Part shown: piece by piece, positions 11,418-25,691 of the stretch | How positions within the stretch are numbered: the stretch's first letter is position 1 | Layout of the letters: each line of letters opens with the position of its first letter | From: Gemmatimonadales bacterium | Lineage (GTDB): Bacteria; Gemmatimonadota; Gemmatimonadetes; Gemmatimonadales; GWC2-71-9 | DNA length: 32,669 bases | NCBI GenBank assembly: GCA_030699545.1 | Contig: JAUYMC010000272.1 | Coordinates: 1-32,669, forward strand | Direction of reading: 5' to 3' | The notes under the pieces: model-generated | Databases searched by the model: none | What the model saw: the letters and a program-made list of their open reading frames with translations, nothing else | Told to the model about the DNA's origin: nothing | Position numbers and translations under genes: made by a program

Positions 11418-11954
11418 TCACAAACTTGGTCGCTCCAGCGGAAACGTCCCGCGGCGATGCCGCGCCGCCTGCTCGACATAATGCTCCCAGGTTCCCCGAA
11501 TGCGCGCGCGCAGACCCTCATCGACGTGACGCACGACACGCGCCGGCACGCCCATCACCAGCGAGCCCGGCGGGATCTGCATGCCCTCGGGCACCACGGC
11601 CCCCGCGGCGATCACGCTCCCCGTCCCGACGCGGACGTCGTTGAGCAGGACGCTGCCCATGCCAATCAGGCATTCGTCCTCCACCGTGCAGGCGTGCAGA
11701 ATCACGCGATGCCCGACGCCGACGCGCGCGCCGATGCGGGCCGGTTTCCCTTCGTCCACATGGACGATCGTGGCGTCCTGCAGGTTGGTGTCCTCGCCCA
11801 CGACGATCGGGGCCATGTCGCCGCGCAGCACGGCCTGGTACCACACGCTCGCGCGGGCGCCGAGCGTCACGTCGCCCAGCACGACGGCGCCGGGCGCGAT
11901 GAAGGCGGTGGGGTGAACTACTGGCGAACGGGCTGGAACGGCCACTGCACCCAC
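11418..11954 (-). CDS. Gamma-class carbonic anhydrase family protein
   Basis: 178 residues, a left-handed beta-helix of hexapeptide repeats, normally a trimer. The conserved block VWYQAVLRGDMAPIVVGEDT (37-56) gives R44 and D46; Q59 follows. H65, H82 (GH) and H87 (LH) are placed like the three zinc ligands of the archaeal enzyme Cam, with the same five-residue spacing between the last two. Reaction: hydration of CO2 to bicarbonate, although many relatives have no shown activity. The GTG start at 11954 lies inside the 3' end of the kinase gene, giving a 37-base overlap; a second in-frame GTG at 11945 has GGAAG upstream and is an alternative. Expression is likely coupled to the kinase. Confidence 0.88.
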   Translation of the reverse strand: MGAVAVPARSPVVHPTAFIAPGAVVLGDVTLGARASVWYQAVLRGDMAPIVVGEDTNLQDATIVHVDEGKPARIGARVGVGHRVILHACTVEDECLIGMGSVLLNDVRVGTGSVIAAGAVVPEGMQIPPGSLVMGVPARVVRHVDEGLRARIRGTWEHYVEQAARHRRGTFPLERPSL

Positions 11955-13795
11955 GCTTCCACGGGATCCCCATTCTTCTGCGCGGGATTCCAGCGGAGGG
12001 ATCGCGCCATGTCGAGCGCTGCATTGTTGAAGGTGTCGACGTTCGACGGCGCATAGACGCGGGCCTCGAGCGTGGTGCCGTTACGCGAGACCTTGATCAG
12101 CAGGATCGCCTGCCGCGGGAAGACGGGCGCGTCGGTCGGAACCGGGATCAGCGTCGGCGAGAGCGGCACCGGGCGCGTATCGAAGCAGAGGTTGTCCTGA
12201 TTGTACGCCGGACCGAACTGCTCGCACGGGCCGACGCTCGGCCCGTCCGCCTGGCGCGACGGGATGAGCTCGATGGCGAGCGTCAGCGTGTCGCCGGGGA
12301 TGATCGGGACCTGCCGGTCGAACCTCTGGTAGCCCGCCGACCGCACCACGAGCCGGTGGAGACCGGGCGGCAGGTCCAGCTCGGTGCCGCGCACCGGTTG
12401 GCCGTCGATGCTCACGCGGGAGCCGCGGGGGACGTTGCGGAGCGCCAGGCGGCCCGGGGTGCCGGGAGGCGCGGGTGGCCGCCGCGGCGCCGCCGCGCGG
12501 GTGGAATCCAGGGCGGCCTGCGCCAGACTGTCGGCCCGCCGCACGGAATCGACGCGGGCGGTGCTGTCGGCCAGCCGAGTGCTGTCGGCCAGGGCCGTGG
12601 AATCGGCCGCGCCGTTCCGGCTGGAGGCGAAAATCAGTCCCTCCCGGTAGGCGAAGAATCCCCCGACGCCGAGGACCGAGCCGACGATCACGAGCCACAG
12701 CGCGAGCCCGGCCGCGACGGAGCGCCGCGCCGGCTCGGCGGCGGTCGGCCGTCCCCCCGTGGCGCGCGGCAGCGGCGTGGTCGGCGCCGTGGCGAGCCGC
12801 ACGCTCGACATCGACGGGATGGCCATGGTGGCGTCGGTGGTGAACGAGACCGACCGTCCGCCTTCGAGCACGGCCACCAGCTCCTCGGCGCTCTGAAACC
12901 GTTGATCGGGCAGCTTCGCCATCATCTTCTTGATGATCTCGAACAGCGTGCGCTTGTCGTGGCTGTCGATCGGCGGGGTCGGAATCTCCTCCATGATGTG
13001 CTTGTAGCCGATCGAAAACGAATCCTCGCCGTCGAACGGGACGCCACCCGTCAGACATTGGTACGCCACGACGCCGAGCGAGTAGATGTCGCTGCGGCCG
13101 TCGAGTTGCTGCGCCTTCGCCTGCTCGGGGCTCATGTAATGCGGCGTGCCGATCGACATGCCGGTGCCGGTGAGCTTGCCGCCGGAGGCGGCTTTCGCGA
13201 TGCCGAAGTCGGTGACCACCGCGTGCCCGTGCTCGTCGAACATGATGTTGTCGGGCTTGATGTCGCGGTGTACGATGCCGCCCTTGTGGGCGTACGCGAG
13301 CGCGCGGGAGACTTCGGCGAGAATGCGGCGGATGTCGAGCGGCGGCAGGCCCCCCCCTCCCCGGGCGGCGAGCACGCTCGACAGCGGCTTGCCGCGCAGG
13401 AACTTCATGACGAAGTAGATCACCCGCCCCTTTTTGCCGACGCGGTAGATCGGGATGATGTTGGGATGCTCGAGCCTGGCGGACGTGCGGGCTTCGCGCT
13501 GGAAGCGCTCCACGAACTCCTTGTCGAACGCGAGCGAGAACGGCAGGACCTTGATCGCGACTTCGCGGTCGAGCTGTTTTTCCTTCGCCTTGAAGACGAT
13601 GGCCATCCCGCCGCGGCCGAGCTCGTCGAGGATCTCGTACTCCTCGTCCAGCTCCTGGCGCACCATGTCGATTTCGGTGATTTCCCGCGGCTCAGTCGTC
13701 GCGCCGACGGGCGTGGTCGCCGTCAGATCGAGACCGCAGGAGTCACAGAACTTCGCGGTGTCCTTATTCTGGGTGCCGCAGCGCGAGCAATACAA
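11918..13795 (-). CDS. Zinc-ribbon/Ser-Thr kinase/TM/PEGA/TonB-C multidomain protein
   Basis: 625 residues. Order: zinc ribbon C3/C6/C17/C20; protein kinase about 54-315 with GRGGMAIV glycine loop, AIK (K82), HRDIKPDN (D178), DFG (D196) and MSPEQ; linker; one transmembrane helix about 360-383; an ADST-type repeat linker (397-433); a PEGA domain about 447-511; and a TonB-like C-terminal domain about 545-622 (RQAILLIKVSRNGTTLEARV). The kinase is cytoplasmic; PEGA and TonB-C would lie outside the membrane. It phosphorylates Ser/Thr; targets are unknown. The TTG start is chosen because GGAG lies 6 bases upstream and the first codons encode the CxxC. The two extracytoplasmic cysteines (C524, C537) might form a disulfide. 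Domain assignments are by pattern. Confidence 0.9.
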   Translation of the reverse strand: MYCSRCGTQNKDTAKFCDSCGLDLTATTPVGATTEPREITEIDMVRQELDEEYEILDELGRGGMAIVFKAKEKQLDREVAIKVLPFSLAFDKEFVERFQREARTSARLEHPNIIPIYRVGKKGRVIYFVMKFLRGKPLSSVLAARGGGGLPPLDIRRILAEVSRALAYAHKGGIVHRDIKPDNIMFDEHGHAVVTDFGIAKAASGGKLTGTGMSIGTPHYMSPEQAKAQQLDGRSDIYSLGVVAYQCLTGGVPFDGEDSFSIGYKHIMEEIPTPPIDSHDKRTLFEIIKKMMAKLPDQRFQSAEELVAVLEGGRSVSFTTDATMAIPSMSSVRLATAPTTPLPRATGGRPTAAEPARRSVAAGLALWLVIVGSVLGVGGFFAYREGLIFASSRNGAADSTALADSTRLADSTARVDSVRRADSLAQAALDSTRAAAPRRPPAPPGTPGRLALRNVPRGSRVSIDGQPVRGTELDLPPGLHRLVVRSAGYQRFDRQVPIIPGDTLTLAIELIPSRQADGPSVGPCEQFGPAYNQDNLCFDTRPVPLSPTLIPVPTDAPVFPRQAILLIKVSRNGTTLEARVYAPSNVDTFNNAALDMARSLRWNPAQKNGDPVEAWVQWPFQPVRQ

Positions 13796-16110: not shown

Positions 16111-18843
16111 TCAGAAGTCGGCCGCGAAGCCCCCATATAGCCGCGCCTGGCGGGGGCCCACCCCCGCGGGTTGCGCGACGCCGACCCGGACTCGCAGCGG
16201 CAGGTCGTAACTGACGGTCAGGTCGCCCACCAGCTCGACGCCGACCGCGCGGGCGCGGTGGAGTCGCGGGCGGTCGCCCGCATTCCACGCGTCTCCCGCA
16301 TCGGCAAAGACGGCCAGCGACAGCTTGTCGATCCCCAGCGGCAGATGCCCGATGGAGCGGCCGATCAGCGCGAGCGGCAGCCGATACTCGAGCGTCACGG
16401 TCGCGGCGCGGCGGCCGCGCAGCGCCCCGCCGTCGTAGCCGCGCACGGGAAACGCTCGCGTCCCTCCGCCGAGCGAGGTACCGAACGGGAGCGACAAGAC
16501 GCCAGAGGAAACTCCGCCCACCGACAGCGCGTCGCTGAGCGAGCCGTTTATCGCGCCTGCCGCGATCCTGGCGGTCAGCACCGGATACGCGAACCCGATG
16601 CGCGGCCCGAAGCGGGCGTACAGCGCCAGACGGCCGCGCGCCTCGTTGGACCAGCGGCGTGTGCCCTGCTCTTCTCTTCGCCGGTACAGCAGGGTGAGCC
16701 CCGCGCCATCCTGCGCTGAAATGGCGAGCGGCCCGGCGGTCACGTGACCGAGCGCGACGACGACCGAACCGCCAACGAGATCGCGCGGCACGCATCCGGC
16801 GCACACCGCCGGCGGTAGCGTGTCGGGGGACGTGGCGAAACGCTCGCCTTCGTACTCCGCGGCGATGCGCACGCTCGCGACACGCCGCCACCGCTGCGCG
16901 ACGAAGGTGGCACCCAGTGCAGCATCCACCTCGTTGATCAGCAGGTCACGACCCAGCGAGCTCCCGATGTGGGACCAATCGTTGGCGGCGGACACGTCGA
17001 GCGTCGGATTCCCCAGCCGGTGCGTCACGTACCCGAAACCTCCCTGCGCGCGCCGCGTGTCGGCGACGAGGCCCGCGATGAGGTAGGCATCGCGTCCCAC
17101 CGCATCCACGCCGGCGGTCAGCGCACCCCAGAATACGCCGGCTGCCTTGCTGTCCACGGCAAGCGGAATCCAGAAGTGCGGGCGGAGCGATCCGAATTCC
17201 GCGTAGCCGGACTCGCGGAGTTGAATCGCAGGCGCGGAATCGAACGCGGCGGGCGCTGCAGCGGCGGCCGCCGCCGCAACCGTGCGTGTCGGCGTCACGA
17301 CGCGCAGCTCCCATCCGCCACGCCCGATCGTCGTGAAGAGCAGGCGGCCGTCGGGCAATGGCGCCGGCGCGCGGGCGCCCAGCGGCTCGACGGTCAGCGG
17401 CACGCCGCAGGACGTCGCGGACCAGGCATGCACCTGCGGGAAACCGCCCACATCGGCGACGTAGAGAAGCGTGTCGCCCATCCAGGCGGGGTCTGACACG
17501 CCGCCGGCCGGTTGCGCCAGCACCGCCATCGATTCCGGCGCGGCCACCGGCCAGCGCACCAGCGCCCAGTGGCCGTCGTGATGCCGCGTCGCGGCGATCC
17601 ACCGGCCGTCGGGCGACGGCACGGCGGCGCCCCACGTCACCCCGGCGGAGTCGCGCGGCCCGGCGGCTCCCCCAATGGCGAGGTGATTATCGCCGGACGT
17701 CACCACGACGGTGGCCGTGCCGCGCGGCTCCAGCACGCGCGCGCCGCGCGTGGCGCGCCGCCAGCGGCCGTCCGGTAGCCAGTGCCAGAGATCGCTGCGC
17801 ACGTGCCACCGGTCGGTGAACTCCAGCTGTGCGACGCGCAGCGTGTCGCCGAGCCAGTCGTAGCTCACCTGGCCGTTCACGCGGTGCGAGCGCAGCGTGC
17901 GCCAGCCGTCCCGCCAGTCGGCGATGCGCAGCCGCGGCGCGCCGCGGCCATCGGCGTGGAGATACGCGACTCGCCGTCCGTCGGGGGAGACGCGCGGCAC
18001 GGGGGGCGCGCGCAAACGCCCCACGACGAGCGCGCTGGGCGCCGCGGTGTCGGGGGGCGCGGCCGCCGCGACGGTTTCCGGCCATGCGGCGGCCAGCGCG
18101 CTCGGCGCACCGGCATGACGCAGCGGCCGTCCCACCCGAAACGGGATCAGCTGACCCGCGGAATGCTCCACGAACCGGGGAACGATGGAATCGGCCAGCG
18201 GCGCCCAGAACCGGCCGCCGTACGCATACGGCGCCAACCCACCGGGCCACCGCGTGAACAGCAGGGCGTCCCAGGGGGAGCGAGCGGCGGCGTGCGCCGC
18301 GTCGGCCGCGACGATTTGGCGATGAAAGCTGCCGGCGGCGCGGCCGCCGCCGGTGAATCGCGACTCATAGTACGTCGCGATGCCTTCCACCACCCAGCTC
18401 GGCTGAAACTGATTGGGAAACAGGCCGGGCGCGCGGCCGAACAGCGACTGGAGGAATCCCCACAGCCGCTTCGAGCGATCGAGGTGAAACAGATGGGCGA
18501 GCTCGTGCACGATGACGAGCCGTCGCCAGCTGTCGTGGGCGCGCAATCCCGGGTCCATCACCGGCGGCACGAGGTACACCGTGAATCGATTGGACGGATA
18601 GGTGGTGGCGAATCCGTTCGGGGCGTCGACATCGTCCGCCAGCGTCAGATCGATCGTGCCGCGCGGCGGCCGCAGCTCCGTGGCGAGCAGCGCGTAGGCG
18701 CGCTCCGCCTCCGCCGCGGCATCGAGCGCCACCGCACGAAACGCAGGCCGGAAGTGGACGCGAAAGTGCGCCGTGTGGAGGGTACGCCATTCGCCGGAGG
18801 GATTGACCTGCAGCAGCGCGATGAACATCGCCGCGATGGTCAT
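16111..18843 (-). CDS. Peptidase MA-like / beta-propeller / Omp85-type barrel fusion
   Basis: 910 residues. Residues 20-170 look like a gluzincin peptidase MA domain: HELAHLFH (113-120) gives the HExxH zinc motif (H113, E114, H117), and VVEGIATYYE (151-160) supplies E153 as third ligand. The middle (about 250-560) has PD40/TolB-like propeller blades (VSPDGRRVAYLHADG, PSPDGRWIAATRHHDG). After an alanine-rich linker, residues from about 590 to 910 are alternating amphipathic strands with VRGYDGG at 800-806, LEYRLPL and FADAGDAW, the Omp85/BamA-type barrel signature, and the chain ends in Phe as outer-membrane proteins do. The N-terminus (MTIAAMFIALLQ) is a weak signal peptide. The ATG at 18843 overlaps the amidase stop. 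Function is unknown; an outer-membrane protease is the simplest reading. Confidence 0.85.
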   Translation of the reverse strand: MTIAAMFIALLQVNPSGEWRTLHTAHFRVHFRPAFRAVALDAAAEAERAYALLATELRPPRGTIDLTLADDVDAPNGFATTYPSNRFTVYLVPPVMDPGLRAHDSWRRLVIVHELAHLFHLDRSKRLWGFLQSLFGRAPGLFPNQFQPSWVVEGIATYYESRFTGGGRAAGSFHRQIVAADAAHAAARSPWDALLFTRWPGGLAPYAYGGRFWAPLADSIVPRFVEHSAGQLIPFRVGRPLRHAGAPSALAAAWPETVAAAAPPDTAAPSALVVGRLRAPPVPRVSPDGRRVAYLHADGRGAPRLRIADWRDGWRTLRSHRVNGQVSYDWLGDTLRVAQLEFTDRWHVRSDLWHWLPDGRWRRATRGARVLEPRGTATVVVTSGDNHLAIGGAAGPRDSAGVTWGAAVPSPDGRWIAATRHHDGHWALVRWPVAAPESMAVLAQPAGGVSDPAWMGDTLLYVADVGGFPQVHAWSATSCGVPLTVEPLGARAPAPLPDGRLLFTTIGRGGWELRVVTPTRTVAAAAAAAAPAAFDSAPAIQLRESGYAEFGSLRPHFWIPLAVDSKAAGVFWGALTAGVDAVGRDAYLIAGLVADTRRAQGGFGYVTHRLGNPTLDVSAANDWSHIGSSLGRDLLINEVDAALGATFVAQRWRRVASVRIAAEYEGERFATSPDTLPPAVCAGCVPRDLVGGSVVVALGHVTAGPLAISAQDGAGLTLLYRRREEQGTRRWSNEARGRLALYARFGPRIGFAYPVLTARIAAGAINGSLSDALSVGGVSSGVLSLPFGTSLGGGTRAFPVRGYDGGALRGRRAATVTLEYRLPLALIGRSIGHLPLGIDKLSLAVFADAGDAWNAGDRPRLHRARAVGVELVGDLTVSYDLPLRVRVGVAQPAGVGPRQARLYGGFAADF

Positions 18844-20705
18844 CGACTCATGGCCCGCAGAAACTCCTCGATCCCGCGGGCGATGCCGCGGGCGTACCGC
18901 CACTGCCCGTCTTCGCTCGCCAGCATCGCCTCCTGTTCCGGAATCATCATGAACAGGCCCTCGGCGAGCGCCGAGGGCATCCATGGATTCCGGGCCAGGG
19001 CGTAATCGCCGCGGCCGATCCCGAGGTCGCGCACGCCCAGCTCGGCGACGAGGGCGCGGTCGAGCGCGCGCGCCAACGCCGCGCCGCGCGGATGAAAGTA
19101 GTACACGCTGGTGCCGTTATTAATGAAAGGATTGATCCCGTCGGGCAGCGCGTTGGCGTGAATGGAGACGAGGACGTCCGCATTGAGCAGCTCGGCGAAG
19201 CGCGTCCGCGGAAAGAGATCGAGGGGCGTGCTGTCGGTTCGCGTGAGCAGCACGCGCGCGCCGCCGCGCTCGAGCAGCGACTTGGCTTTCACCGCCACCG
19301 CGAGCGTCACCACCGCTTCGGGCAGCCCGGACGGACCCTTCGAGCCGGCGGGCGGATGCCCCGGATCGAGCACGATGGTCCGGCCGGCCAGCGGTCGCCG
19401 CCGCTCGATCGCGGGCGGCCGGCGGATCTCGAGGAGCAGATCGCGTCCGCTCCACCGCGTGCGGTAGCCCCAGACGCGTCCGGAGAGGCTCAGCGTGATC
19501 GTGGTCTCATCCGCCGCCGGTTGCGCGAAGCTCATGCGCGTCACGTAGAGATCGCTGCCACCATGCTGCATCCAGTTGATATCGGCCCCGACCCCGTACA
19601 CCCGAAGCGTGAGGCGACGCTCCCCTTCCTCTATTTGAAAGGGCAGCGGCGCGGGCAGCGGCACGCGCAATACGAGCGAGCCATTCGCGCCCGCCGAGAG
19701 CCGCACGGAGCCGACCGTTCCCCCGGGCGGAGGCGTGCCGGGCGGCAACGGCACGACGTCGGGGGCGTTCACCCACGCGACGGCCGATTGCGACAGCTGC
19801 AGGCGCACCTGATCGCGCCACCGGCCCGACATCGTCGCCATCGTGCCGAGGGGAAAGAACCAGTGATACGTGCCGTACGGCACGGCCTTCCCGACGGTCA
19901 GGCTGTCGGTCCTGCCGGTGCGCGCCGTGTCGTCGTCGAGCCGCACCACGAGAGGACGCGAGCGGTCGAGCGTATCCACGACGAGCGGCCACACCGACCG
20001 CACCGTATCCCCGTCGAGGACGACCTCGAGCACGGCGTCGCACAGCGGGCGCGCGGGGAGCCACGCCACGTAGCGGTCGATGGCGGGGGGAAGGCGGTAG
20101 GCCGCGCTGTCGGTCGCGAAAGCGCGCACGCCGGCCGAGGGTTCACCGGCGAGCGTGTTCGCCACGAACGGCACGACGTCTCCCTCGTCGGTCCGCAGCT
20201 GCACTTGCGACCCTGGTGCCGCGCGAACCGCCAATCGGATTCCTTCGCCCGACAGCGCGAGGATCGTGTCCGTCGGCGTGAAGCTGGTGGTGTCGATCCA
20301 GGGGACCGGCGCCCGCCCGTCCGCGGAGTCGGGAGGGGCGGGAGGGCGGAACCGCGGCGCGATGCGGGTGACGAACGTCGTCTCGCGGCTGAACGACCCG
20401 GCGCGCGCCACGAGCTGAAAGCGGGCGAGGGTGTCGTCGGGCAGCGGCAGCCAGGCAAGCCAGGTCCCGTTCGGGTGGACCGTGACCGGCCGCCCGTCGA
20501 TCGTGAGCGTGGCATCGCCCCGGCCGGCGCCGACAGTGCCGAAGAGAAAGGATGAGTCACGCGCCTGGATCGGTACGGCGGTGTCGGGATAGACGACCTG
20601 GATCGCGAGCGGCGCGCGACCGGGGGCGGCTCGATCGATCGGCTCGCGGCGGGCGGCCGCGCATCCCGTTACGGCGACGAGCAACGCCGCCCGGACGAGT
20701 CGCAT
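18840..20705 (-). CDS. Lipoprotein N-acetylmuramoyl-L-alanine amidase (Amidase_3)
   Basis: 621 residues. The start is a lipoprotein signal with lipobox VTGC (C15). Residues 30-430 are a long beta-rich region with no family I can name, containing several SH3- or Ig-like looking segments. The C-terminus (about 440-618) is Amidase_3: VLDPGHPP (445-452) with H450, E463, SIHAN (514-518) with H516, and ALAEGLF (580-586) with the catalytic E582. It cleaves the bond between N-acetylmuramic acid and L-alanine in peptidoglycan, probably from the periplasmic face of a membrane. It is followed with a 4-base overlap by the protease/Omp85 gene, so the two are likely made together. Predicted mRNA is leaderless. 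Confidence 0.92.
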   Translation of the reverse strand: MRLVRAALLVAVTGCAAARREPIDRAAPGRAPLAIQVVYPDTAVPIQARDSSFLFGTVGAGRGDATLTIDGRPVTVHPNGTWLAWLPLPDDTLARFQLVARAGSFSRETTFVTRIAPRFRPPAPPDSADGRAPVPWIDTTSFTPTDTILALSGEGIRLAVRAAPGSQVQLRTDEGDVVPFVANTLAGEPSAGVRAFATDSAAYRLPPAIDRYVAWLPARPLCDAVLEVVLDGDTVRSVWPLVVDTLDRSRPLVVRLDDDTARTGRTDSLTVGKAVPYGTYHWFFPLGTMATMSGRWRDQVRLQLSQSAVAWVNAPDVVPLPPGTPPPGGTVGSVRLSAGANGSLVLRVPLPAPLPFQIEEGERRLTLRVYGVGADINWMQHGGSDLYVTRMSFAQPAADETTITLSLSGRVWGYRTRWSGRDLLLEIRRPPAIERRRPLAGRTIVLDPGHPPAGSKGPSGLPEAVVTLAVAVKAKSLLERGGARVLLTRTDSTPLDLFPRTRFAELLNADVLVSIHANALPDGINPFINNGTSVYYFHPRGAALARALDRALVAELGVRDLGIGRGDYALARNPWMPSALAEGLFMMIPEQEAMLASEDGQWRYARGIARGIEEFLRAMSR

Positions 20706-20774: not shown

Positions 20775-21701
20775 GTGAGTGCCTGCCCCTATTGCGGCCG
20801 CCAGAATGAGGCCGGCGCGCAGTTCTGCACCGACTGCGGGAAGCCGCTCACCAAGGCGGCGGCCGCGCGGGCCGCAGTGGCGGCTGGGGGACGAGGAAGT
20901 GGAGCAGGAGGGGAGGGGGGAGGCCTCATCTCCCGTACGAGCGGACCGCCCCTGCCCGGTGACCAGGCGGCAGACCCCACCCCCTGCCCCGTCTGTGGGT
21001 CGATCACGCCGCACACCGCAGAGCGCCGCCTCACCCCCGATCGTCGTTCCGATCATTCCCTGACTCTCGTCCTCATCTCCGAGATGGCCACGGAGGTGCA
21101 GCGGTTCGAGCGCAAGCACACCTCGACCACGGTCGGTCGGGTGGACGGGGACATCCGCTTCGCGGACGATCAGTACCTCTCGCCGCTGCACGCGAAGCTG
21201 TCGTGGGAAGACGGGCGGCTCGAGGTCCGGGATCTCGGCAGCCGGAACGGCACGTGGGTCTTCCTCGAGGAGCCCTACCGGCTCGCCGATGGCGACGTGT
21301 TCCTCATCGGCTCGCAGGTGATCCGATTCCGGCGCCTGGGCTATCCCGGTCCCCACGCGCCGGACGCCGACGCGACCAAGCGCATGGGCAGCATGGTCCC
21401 CAGCGCGGACATCGCGAGCCTGACGCAGCTGCGGGCCGACGGCAGCTCGCGGGACGTCATCCAGCTGTCGCCGGGACGGGACGTGCATATCGGCCGCGAG
21501 CGCGGCGACTGGATCTTTCCCTACGACCCCTCGATGAGCGCGCAGCACGCGACGGTCCGCTCGGAGGACGCCGACTTCGTCCTGATGGACGACCATAGTC
21601 GCAACGGCGTGGCGATCGCGGCGCGGGGAGCGATGGTGCTGCGGCACGGATCGCGCATCATGGTGGGCGACAAGTTGCTGCGCGTCGAGCTGCCGGCGTG
21701 A
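20775..21701 (+). CDS. Zinc-ribbon protein with two FHA domains
   Basis: 308 residues. The N-terminal ribbon has C4/C7/C18/C21 and a second CPVC pair lies at 71-74. FHA domain 1 is about 96-187 with GR (121-122), LSPLHA (135-140) and GSRNGTW (155-161). FHA domain 2 is about 215-305 with GR (240-241), SAQHA (255-259) and HSRNG (274-278). FHA domains bind phosphothreonine peptides, so this is a soluble cytoplasmic reader or scaffold for the kinase encoded next. GTG start with GGAG 12 bases upstream; a run of seven C lies between. Its stop overlaps the kinase GTG. No transmembrane segment is seen. Confidence 0.92.
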   Translation: MSACPYCGRQNEAGAQFCTDCGKPLTKAAAARAAVAAGGRGSGAGGEGGGLISRTSGPPLPGDQAADPTPCPVCGSITPHTAERRLTPDRRSDHSLTLVLISEMATEVQRFERKHTSTTVGRVDGDIRFADDQYLSPLHAKLSWEDGRLEVRDLGSRNGTWVFLEEPYRLADGDVFLIGSQVIRFRRLGYPGPHAPDADATKRMGSMVPSADIASLTQLRADGSSRDVIQLSPGRDVHIGRERGDWIFPYDPSMSAQHATVRSEDADFVLMDDHSRNGVAIAARGAMVLRHGSRIMVGDKLLRVELPA

Positions 21702-23278
21702 AGACCTGCCCCGTCTGTTCGACCTCCTACGCCGACGATGTGAAGTTCTGCCCGAACGACGGGCAGACGCTGCGCGCCGCCGCCCCCGCGGCGAATCTGG
21801 TCGGCCAGGTGGTGGCGGACCGCTATCACGTGATCAAGAAGCTGGGCGAGGGCGGGATGGGCCAGGTCTATCTCGCCGAGCACGTCAAAATGGGCCGCCG
21901 CAGCGCGATCAAGGTGATGAACCCCGCGATGGTGCACGACCCCGACGCCGTGGCGCGGTTCAACCGCGAGGCGTCGAATGCGAGCCGGATCACCCATCCC
22001 AACGTCTGCGCGATTTACGATTTCGGGGAGACCCCCGACGGACTCATCTATCTCGCGATGGAATTCATCGAGGGCGAGCCGCTCACCGATCTCCTCGAAC
22101 GCGGCGGCGCGCTCGCGCTGCCCCGGGCCGTCGACGTTTTCCTCCAGGCCGGCGACGCGCTGCAGGCGGCACACGATCTGGGGATCGTGCACCGCGATTT
22201 GAAGCCCGACAACATCATGTTGACCCGCCGTAAAGGCGGGGGCGATACGGTGAAAGTCGTGGATTTCGGGATCGCCAAGGCGGTCGGCGGGGACGAGTCG
22301 GGCCAGAAGGTCACCAAGACGGGGCTCGTCGTCGGGACGCCGGAGTTCATGAGCCCCGAGCAGCTGTCGGGGGACACGCTCGACGGTCGCAGCGATCTCT
22401 ACTCGCTGGCGCTCGTCTTCTACCGGATGCTCACCGGCAAGCTGCCGTTCGAGGCGACGACGGTGCAGGAGACGATGATCAAGCGCCTGACCGATGAACC
22501 GGCCACGCTCGCGGCGTCGCGTCCCGACCTCGCGTTCCCGCCCGGGCTGCAGCCGGTGCTGGACACGGCGCTGGCACGCACCCCGATGGAGCGCTATCAG
22601 AGCGTCGCGAAATTCGCCGCGGATGTCGCCGCGATCACCGGACGTCCCGGTCCCGCGGCCGTGCCGCAGACGCGCGCCCCCGCCGATACGGAAGGCAAGA
22701 CCCAGCTGCTCGACGCGACGCCCGGGGGAGCGACCCAGCGCATCTCTGTCCCGAAGGCGCCGGCAGCGCCGCCGCCGCCAACGCGCAAGCGGTCGTTCGT
22801 CCCTGCCGTCATCGCGGCCTTGGTGGTGCTCGCCGGCGGCGGCGCGTGGGTGGTGCTGAACGGCGGCAACCGGGGCACCGACGGCATGGCCGTCGATACG
22901 GCCGGGCAGCGGTCGAACGACACGGTGACGATGGGCGGCGCGCAGCTCGGGAACCGGACCACGCCGCCGGCGCCGCCGGCGCCGCCGCCACCGGCCCGCA
23001 CGAACGCGCTCACCAACGCGACGGCGACCGACTCGCTCGATGCGCTGTTCGACACGATCGACGACCTGAGCGGCGGCATGCTGCGGGACGCGGCGCTCGA
23101 CATCTATAATGCCGCCGGGATGTCCGATCAGAACCGCGCGATGGCCGCGTATCTGACGGCGAACGGATTCGCCAAGCTCGACGATCGGACGCGGACGTGC
23201 GACTGGGCGCAGCGGGCCGTCGCACTCGCCCCCCAGTCGCAGCCGTACCGGGCGCTCCGACAAGAAGCCTGCCGCTGA
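21698..23278 (+). CDS. Membrane Ser/Thr protein kinase with N-terminal zinc ribbon
   Basis: 526 residues. A short ribbon (C4, C7, C18, with Asp21 in the fourth place) precedes a Hanks-type kinase domain about 43-315: GEGGMGQV, AIK (K72), HRDLKPDN (D167), DFG (D189), GTPEFMSPEQ. A Pro-rich linker contains threonines such as EGKTQLLD (332-339), possible phospho-sites for FHA binding. One transmembrane helix (about 367-386) is followed by a Thr/Pro-rich segment and a small helical domain (445-526) with two cysteines, probably extracytoplasmic. GTG start overlaps the FHA gene's stop; the PP2C gene follows after 2 bp. Kinase and phosphatase likely act as a pair on shared targets. Confidence 0.94.
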   Translation: MKTCPVCSTSYADDVKFCPNDGQTLRAAAPAANLVGQVVADRYHVIKKLGEGGMGQVYLAEHVKMGRRSAIKVMNPAMVHDPDAVARFNREASNASRITHPNVCAIYDFGETPDGLIYLAMEFIEGEPLTDLLERGGALALPRAVDVFLQAGDALQAAHDLGIVHRDLKPDNIMLTRRKGGGDTVKVVDFGIAKAVGGDESGQKVTKTGLVVGTPEFMSPEQLSGDTLDGRSDLYSLALVFYRMLTGKLPFEATTVQETMIKRLTDEPATLAASRPDLAFPPGLQPVLDTALARTPMERYQSVAKFAADVAAITGRPGPAAVPQTRAPADTEGKTQLLDATPGGATQRISVPKAPAAPPPPTRKRSFVPAVIAALVVLAGGGAWVVLNGGNRGTDGMAVDTAGQRSNDTVTMGGAQLGNRTTPPAPPAPPPPARTNALTNATATDSLDALFDTIDDLSGGMLRDAALDIYNAAGMSDQNRAMAAYLTANGFAKLDDRTRTCDWAQRAVALAPQSQPYRALRQEACR

Positions 23279-23280
23279 CC

Positions 23281-24312
23281 ATGTTCGGACGCTCGTCGAA
23301 ACCGATCCGCGTCGAGGTCTTCGCCAAGACCGACCTCGGGCGCTCGCGTGAGCACAACGAGGACCGGTTCTTGGTCGCCGACCTCACGCGCAAGGCGGCA
23401 TCGCTGCAGCCCCAGGTGCGCCAGCACGACATCGGCGAGCGCGGCACGCTGTTCGTCGTGGCGGACGGGATGGGCGGCGCGGCCGCCGGCGAGGTGGCGA
23501 GCGAGATGGCGACCGACACGATCTACGCGCACCTCGTGAAGACGTGGCATGAAGAAGACGATCCCACGCCGCAGCGCTTCGCCTACCGGCTCAAGGAAGC
23601 CGTCGAAGCCGCGAATTCGAGCATTCACGCGCACGCCAAGGCGCATCCCGAAGTGCGCGGCATGGGCACGACCACGACGGCCGCCGGTGTGCTCGCCGAT
23701 CATCTCTACCTGACGCAGGTGGGCGACAGCCGTGCCTACCTGGTGCGCGCCGGCACGGCGTATCAGCTCACCAAGGATCAGTCGCTGACGCAGCGGCTCG
23801 TCGAGGCCGGCGAGCTGACCGAGGAAGAAGCGGCGCGCAGCGAGCGCAAGAACATCATTCTCCAGGCGCTCGGCCCCGATCCCAAAGTCAAAGTGGATCT
23901 GACGCACCAGGACGTCCGGCGCGGCGACGTTCTGGTGCTCTGCTCCGACGGCCTGTCGGGCCAGGTCCGCAAAGACGAGATCGCGCGCATCGTCACCGAG
24001 GCCCCCGACCTCAGCGCCGCGTGCGATCAACTGGTCGCGCTGGCGAACGAGCGCGGCGGCCCCGACAACATCACGGTAGTCATCGCGCGTTTCGATGGCG
24101 ACGGGTTACGCCCCTCCGGCCAGCACGAAGACGTCGGGCATCAGGTCTATCCGCTGATCGACACCGAGACGAGCACCGAGCCCGTCCCCGTCTACAAGGG
24201 CAGCCGCCCGCCGGTGCCGTCGCGCGACGCCCGCGTCCGCACCCGCACGATCGTGCTCGCCGCGCTCGCGGTGATCGCCGCCGTCGTCTGGTACTTCACC
24301 CGGAGCCCGTGA
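23281..24312 (+). CDS. PP2C-family Ser/Thr phosphatase, membrane-anchored
   Basis: 343 residues. The metal-dependent phosphatase domain spans about 11-272: HNEDRF (25-30), VADGMGG (60-66) with D62, GMGTTTTA (128-135), QVGDSRAYL (146-154), CSDGLSG (221-227) with D223, and GGPDNITVV (259-267) with D262. All expected manganese-binding acidic residues appear present. The C-terminus has a linker and a single transmembrane helix (about 322-339) with almost no residues beyond it, so the enzyme faces the cytoplasm as a tail-anchored protein. It should dephosphorylate the neighbouring kinase and its targets. ATG 23281 is chosen because it starts just after the kinase stop. Its TGA overlaps the next gene's GTG. 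Confidence 0.95.
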   Translation: MFGRSSKPIRVEVFAKTDLGRSREHNEDRFLVADLTRKAASLQPQVRQHDIGERGTLFVVADGMGGAAAGEVASEMATDTIYAHLVKTWHEEDDPTPQRFAYRLKEAVEAANSSIHAHAKAHPEVRGMGTTTTAAGVLADHLYLTQVGDSRAYLVRAGTAYQLTKDQSLTQRLVEAGELTEEEAARSERKNIILQALGPDPKVKVDLTHQDVRRGDVLVLCSDGLSGQVRKDEIARIVTEAPDLSAACDQLVALANERGGPDNITVVIARFDGDGLRPSGQHEDVGHQVYPLIDTETSTEPVPVYKGSRPPVPSRDARVRTRTIVLAALAVIAAVVWYFTRSP

Positions 24313-25691
24313 AAGCCCAGTTCACGTTTCTCTCGGGCGCCCGGGCCGGGCAGGTGGAGGCCTTCCGGAAGGGATACATCGGGCTGGGGCGCCACCCCCT
24401 GTCGGATGTGCGGTTCGATGCCGAGCGCGATCTCGACGTGTCGAGCCGCCATGCCTCCATCGTGCGCAGGCCCGAGGGATTTGTGCTCCAGGACCTCGGG
24501 AGCCGCAACGGCACCTTCGTCAACGGCGAGCGGATCAGCGGCGACGTCCCGCTCAAGGACGGCGACGTCATCGGGTTCGGCGCCAACGGCCCGGCGCTCG
24601 AGTTTCACGCGATCGCGTCCGACGAGCCGGTGATCGCCGAGCGGCACTCGACGCCGCCGGGCGTCTACCGCGCGACCCCGATGTCGTCTCCCGCGCCCCC
24701 CCCTCCGCCCTCGCGGCCGAGCACCGGGGTCCGGATCGCGGTCGAGGTCGCCCGCCAGACCGCGCAGCTGCGGCGCACGACCAAAGTGCTCATCGTGCTG
24801 TTGGTCGTCGCGGCGAGCGCGTTTGCCTGGCTCCAGTGGCAGAGTGGCCGGCGCGACGAGCTGCTGGCGCAGCAGCAGGTGCGTGCCGACAGCGCCTTGC
24901 AGGGCGTGCGGGCGGCCCTCGTCGAATCGCAGTCCGAGACCAGCCGCCTGCGCCGCGCGCTCGCGGAGGCCGGAACCAGCGGCGAGTCGGTCACCCGGCT
25001 GCGCGCCGCGCTCGCCGCCGCCGAGGAGCGCCAGCGGGCGATCGCCAGCGCGGCCGGCGGCGTCGATTACCGCGCGATCTCGCACAAGAACCAGGACGCC
25101 GTCGCGATCGTGCTGGTCGAGTTCTCGGATGCCGAGCGCTACAGCGGCACCGCGTTCGCGGTCGACTCGATCGGGACGCTCGTCACGAACAAGCACATCC
25201 TGGCGGGCGAAAGCGGCAAAGGGATTCCCCGCCGCATCGGCGTGGTTTTCTCCGGCAGCACACAGATGTGGCGCGGTGAGGTCGTCGGCGTAGCCCCGCA
25301 CGCCGATATCGGCGTCCTTCGGGTCTCCATTAAGGGAGGAACGCCGCGCGTCGCCGGCCTGGCGCGCAGCCGTCAGGGGATCGAGCGAGGCGACCCCGTG
25401 GCGATCATCGGCTATCCGATGGGGTTCGATTTACCGATGGAGGCGCAGGGCCAGCGCCCGATCGCCGAGCCGACGCTCACCGTCGGCACCGTCAGCAAGA
25501 CCCTGACCGCGGTGGTCCAGGTGGACGGTTACGGCGCGCCCGGCTCCTCAGGCAGTCCGATTTTCGATCGCGACGGCCGCGTGATTGCGGTGCTGTACGG
25601 CGGCGAGCGGGAATCGCAGGGGAAGATCATTTTCGCCGTCCCCGCGTACATCGTGGCCGATTATCTGAAGTCGCTCAACCTGCTGCGCTGA
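24309..25691 (+). CDS. FHA / transmembrane / coiled-coil / trypsin-like protease protein
   Basis: 460 residues from the GTG at 24309, which overlaps the PP2C stop. FHA domain about 3-100: GLGRHPLSDV (25-34), SSRHAS (45-50), GSRNGTFVNGERI (64-76). A Pro-rich linker precedes one transmembrane helix (about 158-176), then a helical, heptad-like region (180-248), then an S1-type protease domain (258-460) with TNKHIL (H296), PHADIGVL (D333) and GSSGSPIFD (S414 nucleophile), an intact triad. With the FHA inside, the coiled coil and protease lie outside the membrane. It is therefore a candidate effector that reads cytoplasmic phosphorylation and changes extracytoplasmic proteolysis. No PDZ domain is present, unlike DegP/DegS. 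The 3' end overlaps the convergent nagZ-like gene by 17 bases. Confidence 0.93.
   Translation: MKAQFTFLSGARAGQVEAFRKGYIGLGRHPLSDVRFDAERDLDVSSRHASIVRRPEGFVLQDLGSRNGTFVNGERISGDVPLKDGDVIGFGANGPALEFHAIASDEPVIAERHSTPPGVYRATPMSSPAPPPPPSRPSTGVRIAVEVARQTAQLRRTTKVLIVLLVVAASAFAWLQWQSGRRDELLAQQQVRADSALQGVRAALVESQSETSRLRRALAEAGTSGESVTRLRAALAAAEERQRAIASAAGGVDYRAISHKNQDAVAIVLVEFSDAERYSGTAFAVDSIGTLVTNKHILAGESGKGIPRRIGVVFSGSTQMWRGEVVGVAPHADIGVLRVSIKGGTPRVAGLARSRQGIERGDPVAIIGYPMGFDLPMEAQGQRPIAEPTLTVGTVSKTLTAVVQVDGYGAPGSSGSPIFDRDGRVIAVLYGGERESQGKIIFAVPAYIVADYLKSLNLLR

What the first reader, a model, noticed from the sequence alone, without database searches (positions are those of the whole stretch)
16111..18843. 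Zinc protease, beta-propeller and Omp85-type barrel in one polypeptide
A HExxH gluzincin head with a downstream VVEG glutamate, PD40-like blades and a C-terminal barrel with VRGY and terminal Phe form an unusual combination. The protease would be displayed in the periplasm or at the surface by its own barrel. Translation is coupled to a peptidoglycan amidase.
Basis: partly seen in the sequence, partly recalled or inferred. Interest (0 to 1): 0.65.

Follow-up and report, generated by a model that had tools for sequence, protein, structure and literature searches.

The report
Outer-membrane barrel carrying a zinc protease
A real and widely conserved bacterial protein joins a zinc protease, a TolB-like propeller and an outer-membrane barrel of the BamA type in one chain, so it most likely acts as a protease tethered to the inside of the outer membrane; the barrel-propeller pairing was already known, the active-looking protease head much less so.

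Summary
The 910-aa ORF at 16111-18843(-) holds three confidently predicted domains (AlphaFold2, pLDDT 90, pTM 0.91): an alpha/beta gluzincin (residues 18-262), a six-bladed TolB-like propeller (271-546) and a 16-stranded barrel (559-906). VRGY lies in the loop between strands 11 and 12, where Omp85 proteins carry it. Across 47 aligned relatives H113, E114, H117 and E153 are invariant; R801, G802 and the terminal Phe are nearly so. It is no frameshift fusion: the layout recurs through Gemmatimonadota, Myxococcota and part of Acidobacteriota, and this genome encodes two more divergent copies beside a canonical BamA. Amidase coupling is also real: the stop/start overlap recurs in 16 of 21 relatives examined, although the amidase is absent next to distant homologues. 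Most likely it is a periplasmic zinc protease anchored by its own Omp85-type barrel, in envelope maintenance or protein quality control. Surface display is not supported, because protease and propeller sit on the face opposite the VRGY loop. A 2014 survey already named a 'WD40-Omp85' subfamily with a TolB-like propeller, but the passages I read mention no protease head. New variant of a known kind. Activity, location and substrate are untested.

The parts
16111..18843 (-). Protease-propeller-barrel gene, 910 aa
   Evidence: ORF and translation; full-length homologues in several phyla; AF2 pLDDT 90, pTM 0.91
18808..18843 (-). Short N-terminal hydrophobic segment MTIAAMFIALLQ, a signal peptide that looks truncated (residues 1-12)
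   Evidence: Sequence; relatives have a fuller signal peptide at the same junction, e.g. L008 MRILLALLAFPSIASSQ; lowest-confidence part of the model
18058..18807 (-). Gluzincin-type peptidase domain (residues 13-262)
   Evidence: Model of residues 1-265, pLDDT 88.7; Foldseek to M1 aminopeptidases, LTA4 hydrolase and M30 lugdulysin; Peptidase_MA_2 and DUF1570 in some relatives
18493..18507 (-). HELAH zinc-binding motif (H113, E114, H117)
   Evidence: 47/47 invariant
18385..18387 (-). Third-ligand glutamate E153 in WVVEG
   Evidence: 47/47 invariant
17206..18033 (-). Six-bladed TolB/PD40-like beta-propeller (residues 271-546)
   Evidence: About 23 strands in the model; profile match to TolB 2.7e-27; TIGR02800 in 44/47 members
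16114..17169 (-). 16-stranded Omp85-type barrel (residues 559-910)
   Evidence: Model; Foldseek to D. radiodurans, F. nucleatum and E. coli BamA; NCBIfam BamA-type 2.8e-5
16435..16446 (-). VRGY motif in the strand 11-12 loop (residues 800-803)
   Evidence: R and G in 44/47; position from the model
18840..20705 (-). Upstream gene, N-acetylmuramoyl-L-alanine amidase (Amidase_3), whose stop overlaps the protease start (ATGA, 18840-18843)
   Evidence: Pfam 9.6e-30; adjacency and overlap in relatives

Best explanation
It is an outer-membrane protein whose BamA-type barrel anchors a TolB-like propeller and an active-looking zinc endopeptidase on the periplasmic face. The propeller probably holds a protein or peptidoglycan-linked partner, and the protease cuts envelope proteins there, for example misassembled outer-membrane or amidase-associated proteins. 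In Gemmatimonadota it is made together with a peptidoglycan amidase, which points to envelope maintenance or remodelling. Supported by computation: domains, conserved catalytic residues, barrel, distribution and gene coupling. Inferred: periplasmic orientation, enzymatic activity, partner and substrate.
For: Invariant gluzincin residues in 47/47. High-confidence three-domain model with pTM 0.91. Barrel closest to BamA and propeller to TolB. Peptidase closest to MA(E)-type zinc peptidases. The long loop carrying VRGY joins strands 11 and 12, so it lies on the face opposite the N-terminal domains, as in Omp85 (my reading). The genome has separate POTRA-bearing BamA and TamA-like proteins, so this protein need not be the assembly factor. 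The amidase lies directly upstream and co-oriented in most near relatives, with a stop/start overlap in 16 of 21.
Against: No biochemical data. Omp85 is below Pfam cut-off in the window protein. The window copy has a weak-looking signal peptide. The amidase is not linked in several relatives (L010, L011, L013, L021, L023, L049) or in any locus examined from Myxococcota or Acidobacteriota, so an amidase-specific role cannot be general.
Confidence: 0.6

Rival explanations
1. The barrel moves the protease and propeller to the cell surface, as proposed for patatin-like PlpD, so it is a surface-displayed or released protease.
For: PlpD is a precedent for an enzyme domain fused to an Omp85-type barrel (PMC4104836).
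Against: Ordinary Omp85 topology places the N-terminus in the periplasm, and the model puts the long L6 loop on the opposite face. No POTRA domain is present.
Confidence: 0.15
2. It is mainly an outer-membrane assembly or translocation factor, a BamA-BamB-like fusion, in which the protease head serves recognition more than catalysis.
For: Barrel closest to BamA; the 2014 survey reads WD40-Omp85 proteins as reminiscent of a BamA-BamB fusion (PMC4104836).
Against: All catalytic-type residues are invariant in 47/47; no POTRA domains; canonical BamA and TamA-like proteins are present.
Confidence: 0.2
3. The ORF joins separate genes by a frameshift or assembly error.
Against: Unbroken full-length homologues in most genomes sampled from two phyla and in others; single confident model.
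Confidence: 0.01

Closest known systems
WD40-Omp85 subfamily (Heinz and Lithgow 2014, PMC4104836)
   Same: TolB-like propeller N-terminal to an Omp85 barrel, non-POTRA N-terminal part
   Different: The passages I read describe no HExxH protease head; whether their sequences have one could not be checked, because supplements were not available
BamA / Omp85 barrels
   Same: 16 strands, RG motif in the strand 11-12 loop, C-terminal Phe, best Foldseek matches
   Different: No POTRA domains; extra protease and propeller
TolB
   Same: Six-bladed PD40 propeller, profile match 2.7e-27
   Different: TolB is a separate periplasmic protein with its own N-terminal domain and no barrel
Peptidase MA / M1 / M30 gluzincins
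   Same: HExxH plus downstream Glu, similar fold (Foldseek E 7.6e-5 and weaker)
   Different: Low identity (mostly 12-16%) in the structural alignments; no family model reaches its cut-off for the window protein
'Metallo' Omp85 subfamily (same paper)
   Same: Metal-enzyme domain plus Omp85 barrel
   Different: Defined by PF00149, which to my knowledge is the calcineurin-like metallophosphoesterase family and not an HExxH peptidase
BepA (from my own knowledge)
   Same: Periplasmic M48-type zinc protease acting at the outer-membrane assembly machinery
   Different: BepA carries TPRs and works with BAM instead of having its own barrel; not compared here

Membership tests
Omp85 superfamily | C-terminal 16-stranded barrel | tested here: met
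   AF2 model with 16 strands by my count; BamA barrels lead Foldseek
Omp85 superfamily | (V/I/L)RG(F/Y) motif in loop 6 | tested here: met
   VRGY at 800-803 between strands 11 and 12; R and G in 44/47
Omp85 superfamily | Pfam Omp85 above cut-off | tested here: inconclusive
   12.6 bits against 24 in the window protein; 18 of 47 relatives match at E 0.1 or better, best 4e-9
BamA / TamA | N-terminal POTRA domains | tested here: not met
   None by Pfam and none in the model; the N-terminal part is peptidase plus propeller
WD40-Omp85 subfamily | TolB-like propeller before an Omp85 barrel | tested here: met
WD40-Omp85 subfamily | Clustering with the published members | not testable with these tools
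   Member list is in supplements that could not be opened
Gluzincin zinc peptidases, clan MA(E) | HExxH with downstream Glu ligand | tested here: met
   H113, E114, H117, E153 invariant
Gluzincin zinc peptidases, clan MA(E) | Zincin fold | tested here: met
   Foldseek to M1, LTA4 hydrolase and M30, at modest TM-scores (query-normalised 0.43-0.57)
Gluzincin zinc peptidases, clan MA(E) | Zinc binding and proteolysis | not testable with these tools
   Needs biochemistry

The most novel reading that the evidence does not exclude
A self-contained outer-membrane machine in which the Omp85 barrel inserts or exports substrates and the attached zinc protease cuts them as they pass, so that translocation or assembly and processing are coupled in one chain.
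Probability: 0.1. Interest if true: 0.75.

Novelty: new variant of a known kind. Interest (0 to 1): 0.45.

Why it matters
If active, it shows that diderm bacteria of two or more phyla place a zinc protease permanently at the inner face of the outer membrane through its own BamA-type barrel, beside the canonical assembly machinery. It would give a genetic handle on outer-membrane protein quality control, and on how peptidoglycan cutting is tied to the outer membrane, in lineages where little of this has been studied.

Tried and rejected
Frameshift or chimeric ORF: rejected by full-length relatives. Sequence search of the PDB with the single protein found nothing, so the profile and the models were used. 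Reading the upstream ATG at 18984 as the true start was rejected because that stretch lies inside the amidase and is not hydrophobic. Literature searches for a peptidase MA, PD40 and Omp85 combination found no paper describing it; the Myxococcus porin paper gave no such protein in the passages shown. Metzincin reading rejected, since no third His/Asp stands at the metzincin position.

Full report
What is there. The ORF at 16111-18843 on the minus strand encodes 910 residues. Pfam on the protein itself gives PD40 above cut-off, with YgjP-like metallopeptidase and Omp85 below it. A 47-row alignment of the protein and relatives from Gemmatimonadota, Myxococcota, Acidobacteriota and other MAGs (A1) has H113, E114, H117 and E153 invariant; R801 and G802 of VRGY occur in 44 of 47, and the terminal Phe in 44 of 47. 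Phylum names here rest on the record titles of the relatives; the nearest ones are Gemmatimonadetes MAGs.

Structure. AlphaFold2 on A1 gives mean pLDDT 90 and pTM 0.91. Reading its DSSP string, residues 18-262 are an alpha/beta peptidase, 271-546 hold about 23 strands (six blades), and 559-906 hold 16 barrel strands; the 44-residue loop between strands 11 and 12 contains VRGY, the place of loop 6 in Omp85 proteins. Foldseek puts BamA barrels and TolB among the best solved matches. The peptidase domain modelled alone matches M1 aminopeptidases, LTA4 hydrolase and M30 lugdulysin at modest scores. The A1 profile matches TolB at 2.7e-27, and NCBIfam finds TolB in 44 members and a BamA model in 27. 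Coordinates of the model were not available, so the geometry of the zinc site was not measured.

Distribution. 257 of 298 genomes of the phylum have a match at E 0.001 or better, with many full-length unbroken frames among the listed ones; some of the weaker matches will be other propeller proteins. At E 1e-60, 74 of 96 genomes of the phylum of a Myxococcales MAG and 15 of 99 of the phylum of an Acidobacteria MAG match, mostly across the whole profile. The genome of the window has two more proteins of the same layout: L100:868-4128 (HELVH, PD40, Omp85 at 2.8e-11) and L106:635-3484 (HELVH, Peptidase_MA_2, PD40, LRGY; its barrel is weaker, 20.8 bits against a cut-off of 24), beside a canonical POTRA-bearing BamA and a TamA-like protein. 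So the combination is ordinary in these lineages although I found no paper that describes it.

Neighbourhood. The amidase lies directly upstream and co-oriented in most near relatives. In a set of 22 loci (the window and 21 relatives) a start codon overlaps the amidase stop by the same offset in 17, the window included, and the remaining five keep the same relative frame. An FHA protein and a kinase lie divergently, and a GWxTD/TPR protein and a second kinase downstream, in many of them. The amidase is missing next to the gene in some near relatives and next to nearly all distant ones examined, so it is a lineage partner and not part of the core function.

Location and function. Both the fold class and the loop pattern put the N-terminal domains on the periplasmic face; this is inference from Omp85 topology and the model, not a measurement. 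Conservation of every catalytic-type residue argues for an active enzyme. I therefore favour a periplasmic, barrel-anchored zinc protease in envelope maintenance or quality control, with about 0.6 confidence in that general reading and less in any particular substrate.

Known or new. Heinz and Lithgow (PMC4104836) defined a WD40-Omp85 subfamily with a TolB-like propeller and a separate 'Metallo' subfamily with PF00149. The window protein fits the first plus an HExxH head that the passages I read do not mention. I could not open the supplements to see whether their members carry it. Hence: new variant of a known kind, moderate interest.

Noticed in passing
window 18808-18843: The signal peptide of the window copy (MTIAAMFIALLQ) has no charged n-region and seems to lack the c-region that relatives show, so export efficiency of this copy is uncertain.
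   Followed up: partly
L003, L005, L009, L014, L015, L016, L032, L033, L037 at the amidase/protease junction: In several relatives a repeat-like stretch (CGGAATGCGGA / CGGATTGCGGA type, with a TTCCGCAT-like counterpart) sits at the junction and appears to be read as part of the signal peptide.
   Followed up: no
L100:868-4128 and L106:635-3484: Two further HExxH-propeller-barrel proteins in the same genome, from clearly different subfamilies.
   Followed up: partly
L072 and L074: Bacteroidota proteins with a related Omp85 end (LRGY/VRGY, terminal Phe) but no HExxH, so the barrel may occur with other heads.
   Followed up: no
window 11918-13795 and 20775-25691: Kinase with zinc ribbon, PEGA and TonB_C domains, an FHA protein, a second kinase, and an FHA plus trypsin-like protein cluster around the gene; much of this order is conserved in relatives.
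   Followed up: partly
PMC4104836: The paper calls PF00149 a metalloprotease domain; to my knowledge it is the calcineurin-like metallophosphoesterase family.
   Followed up: no
L040: A contig labelled Myxococcota carries the protease-barrel gene followed by a kinase1 homologue as in Gemmatimonadota; it may be misbinned or transferred.
   Followed up: no
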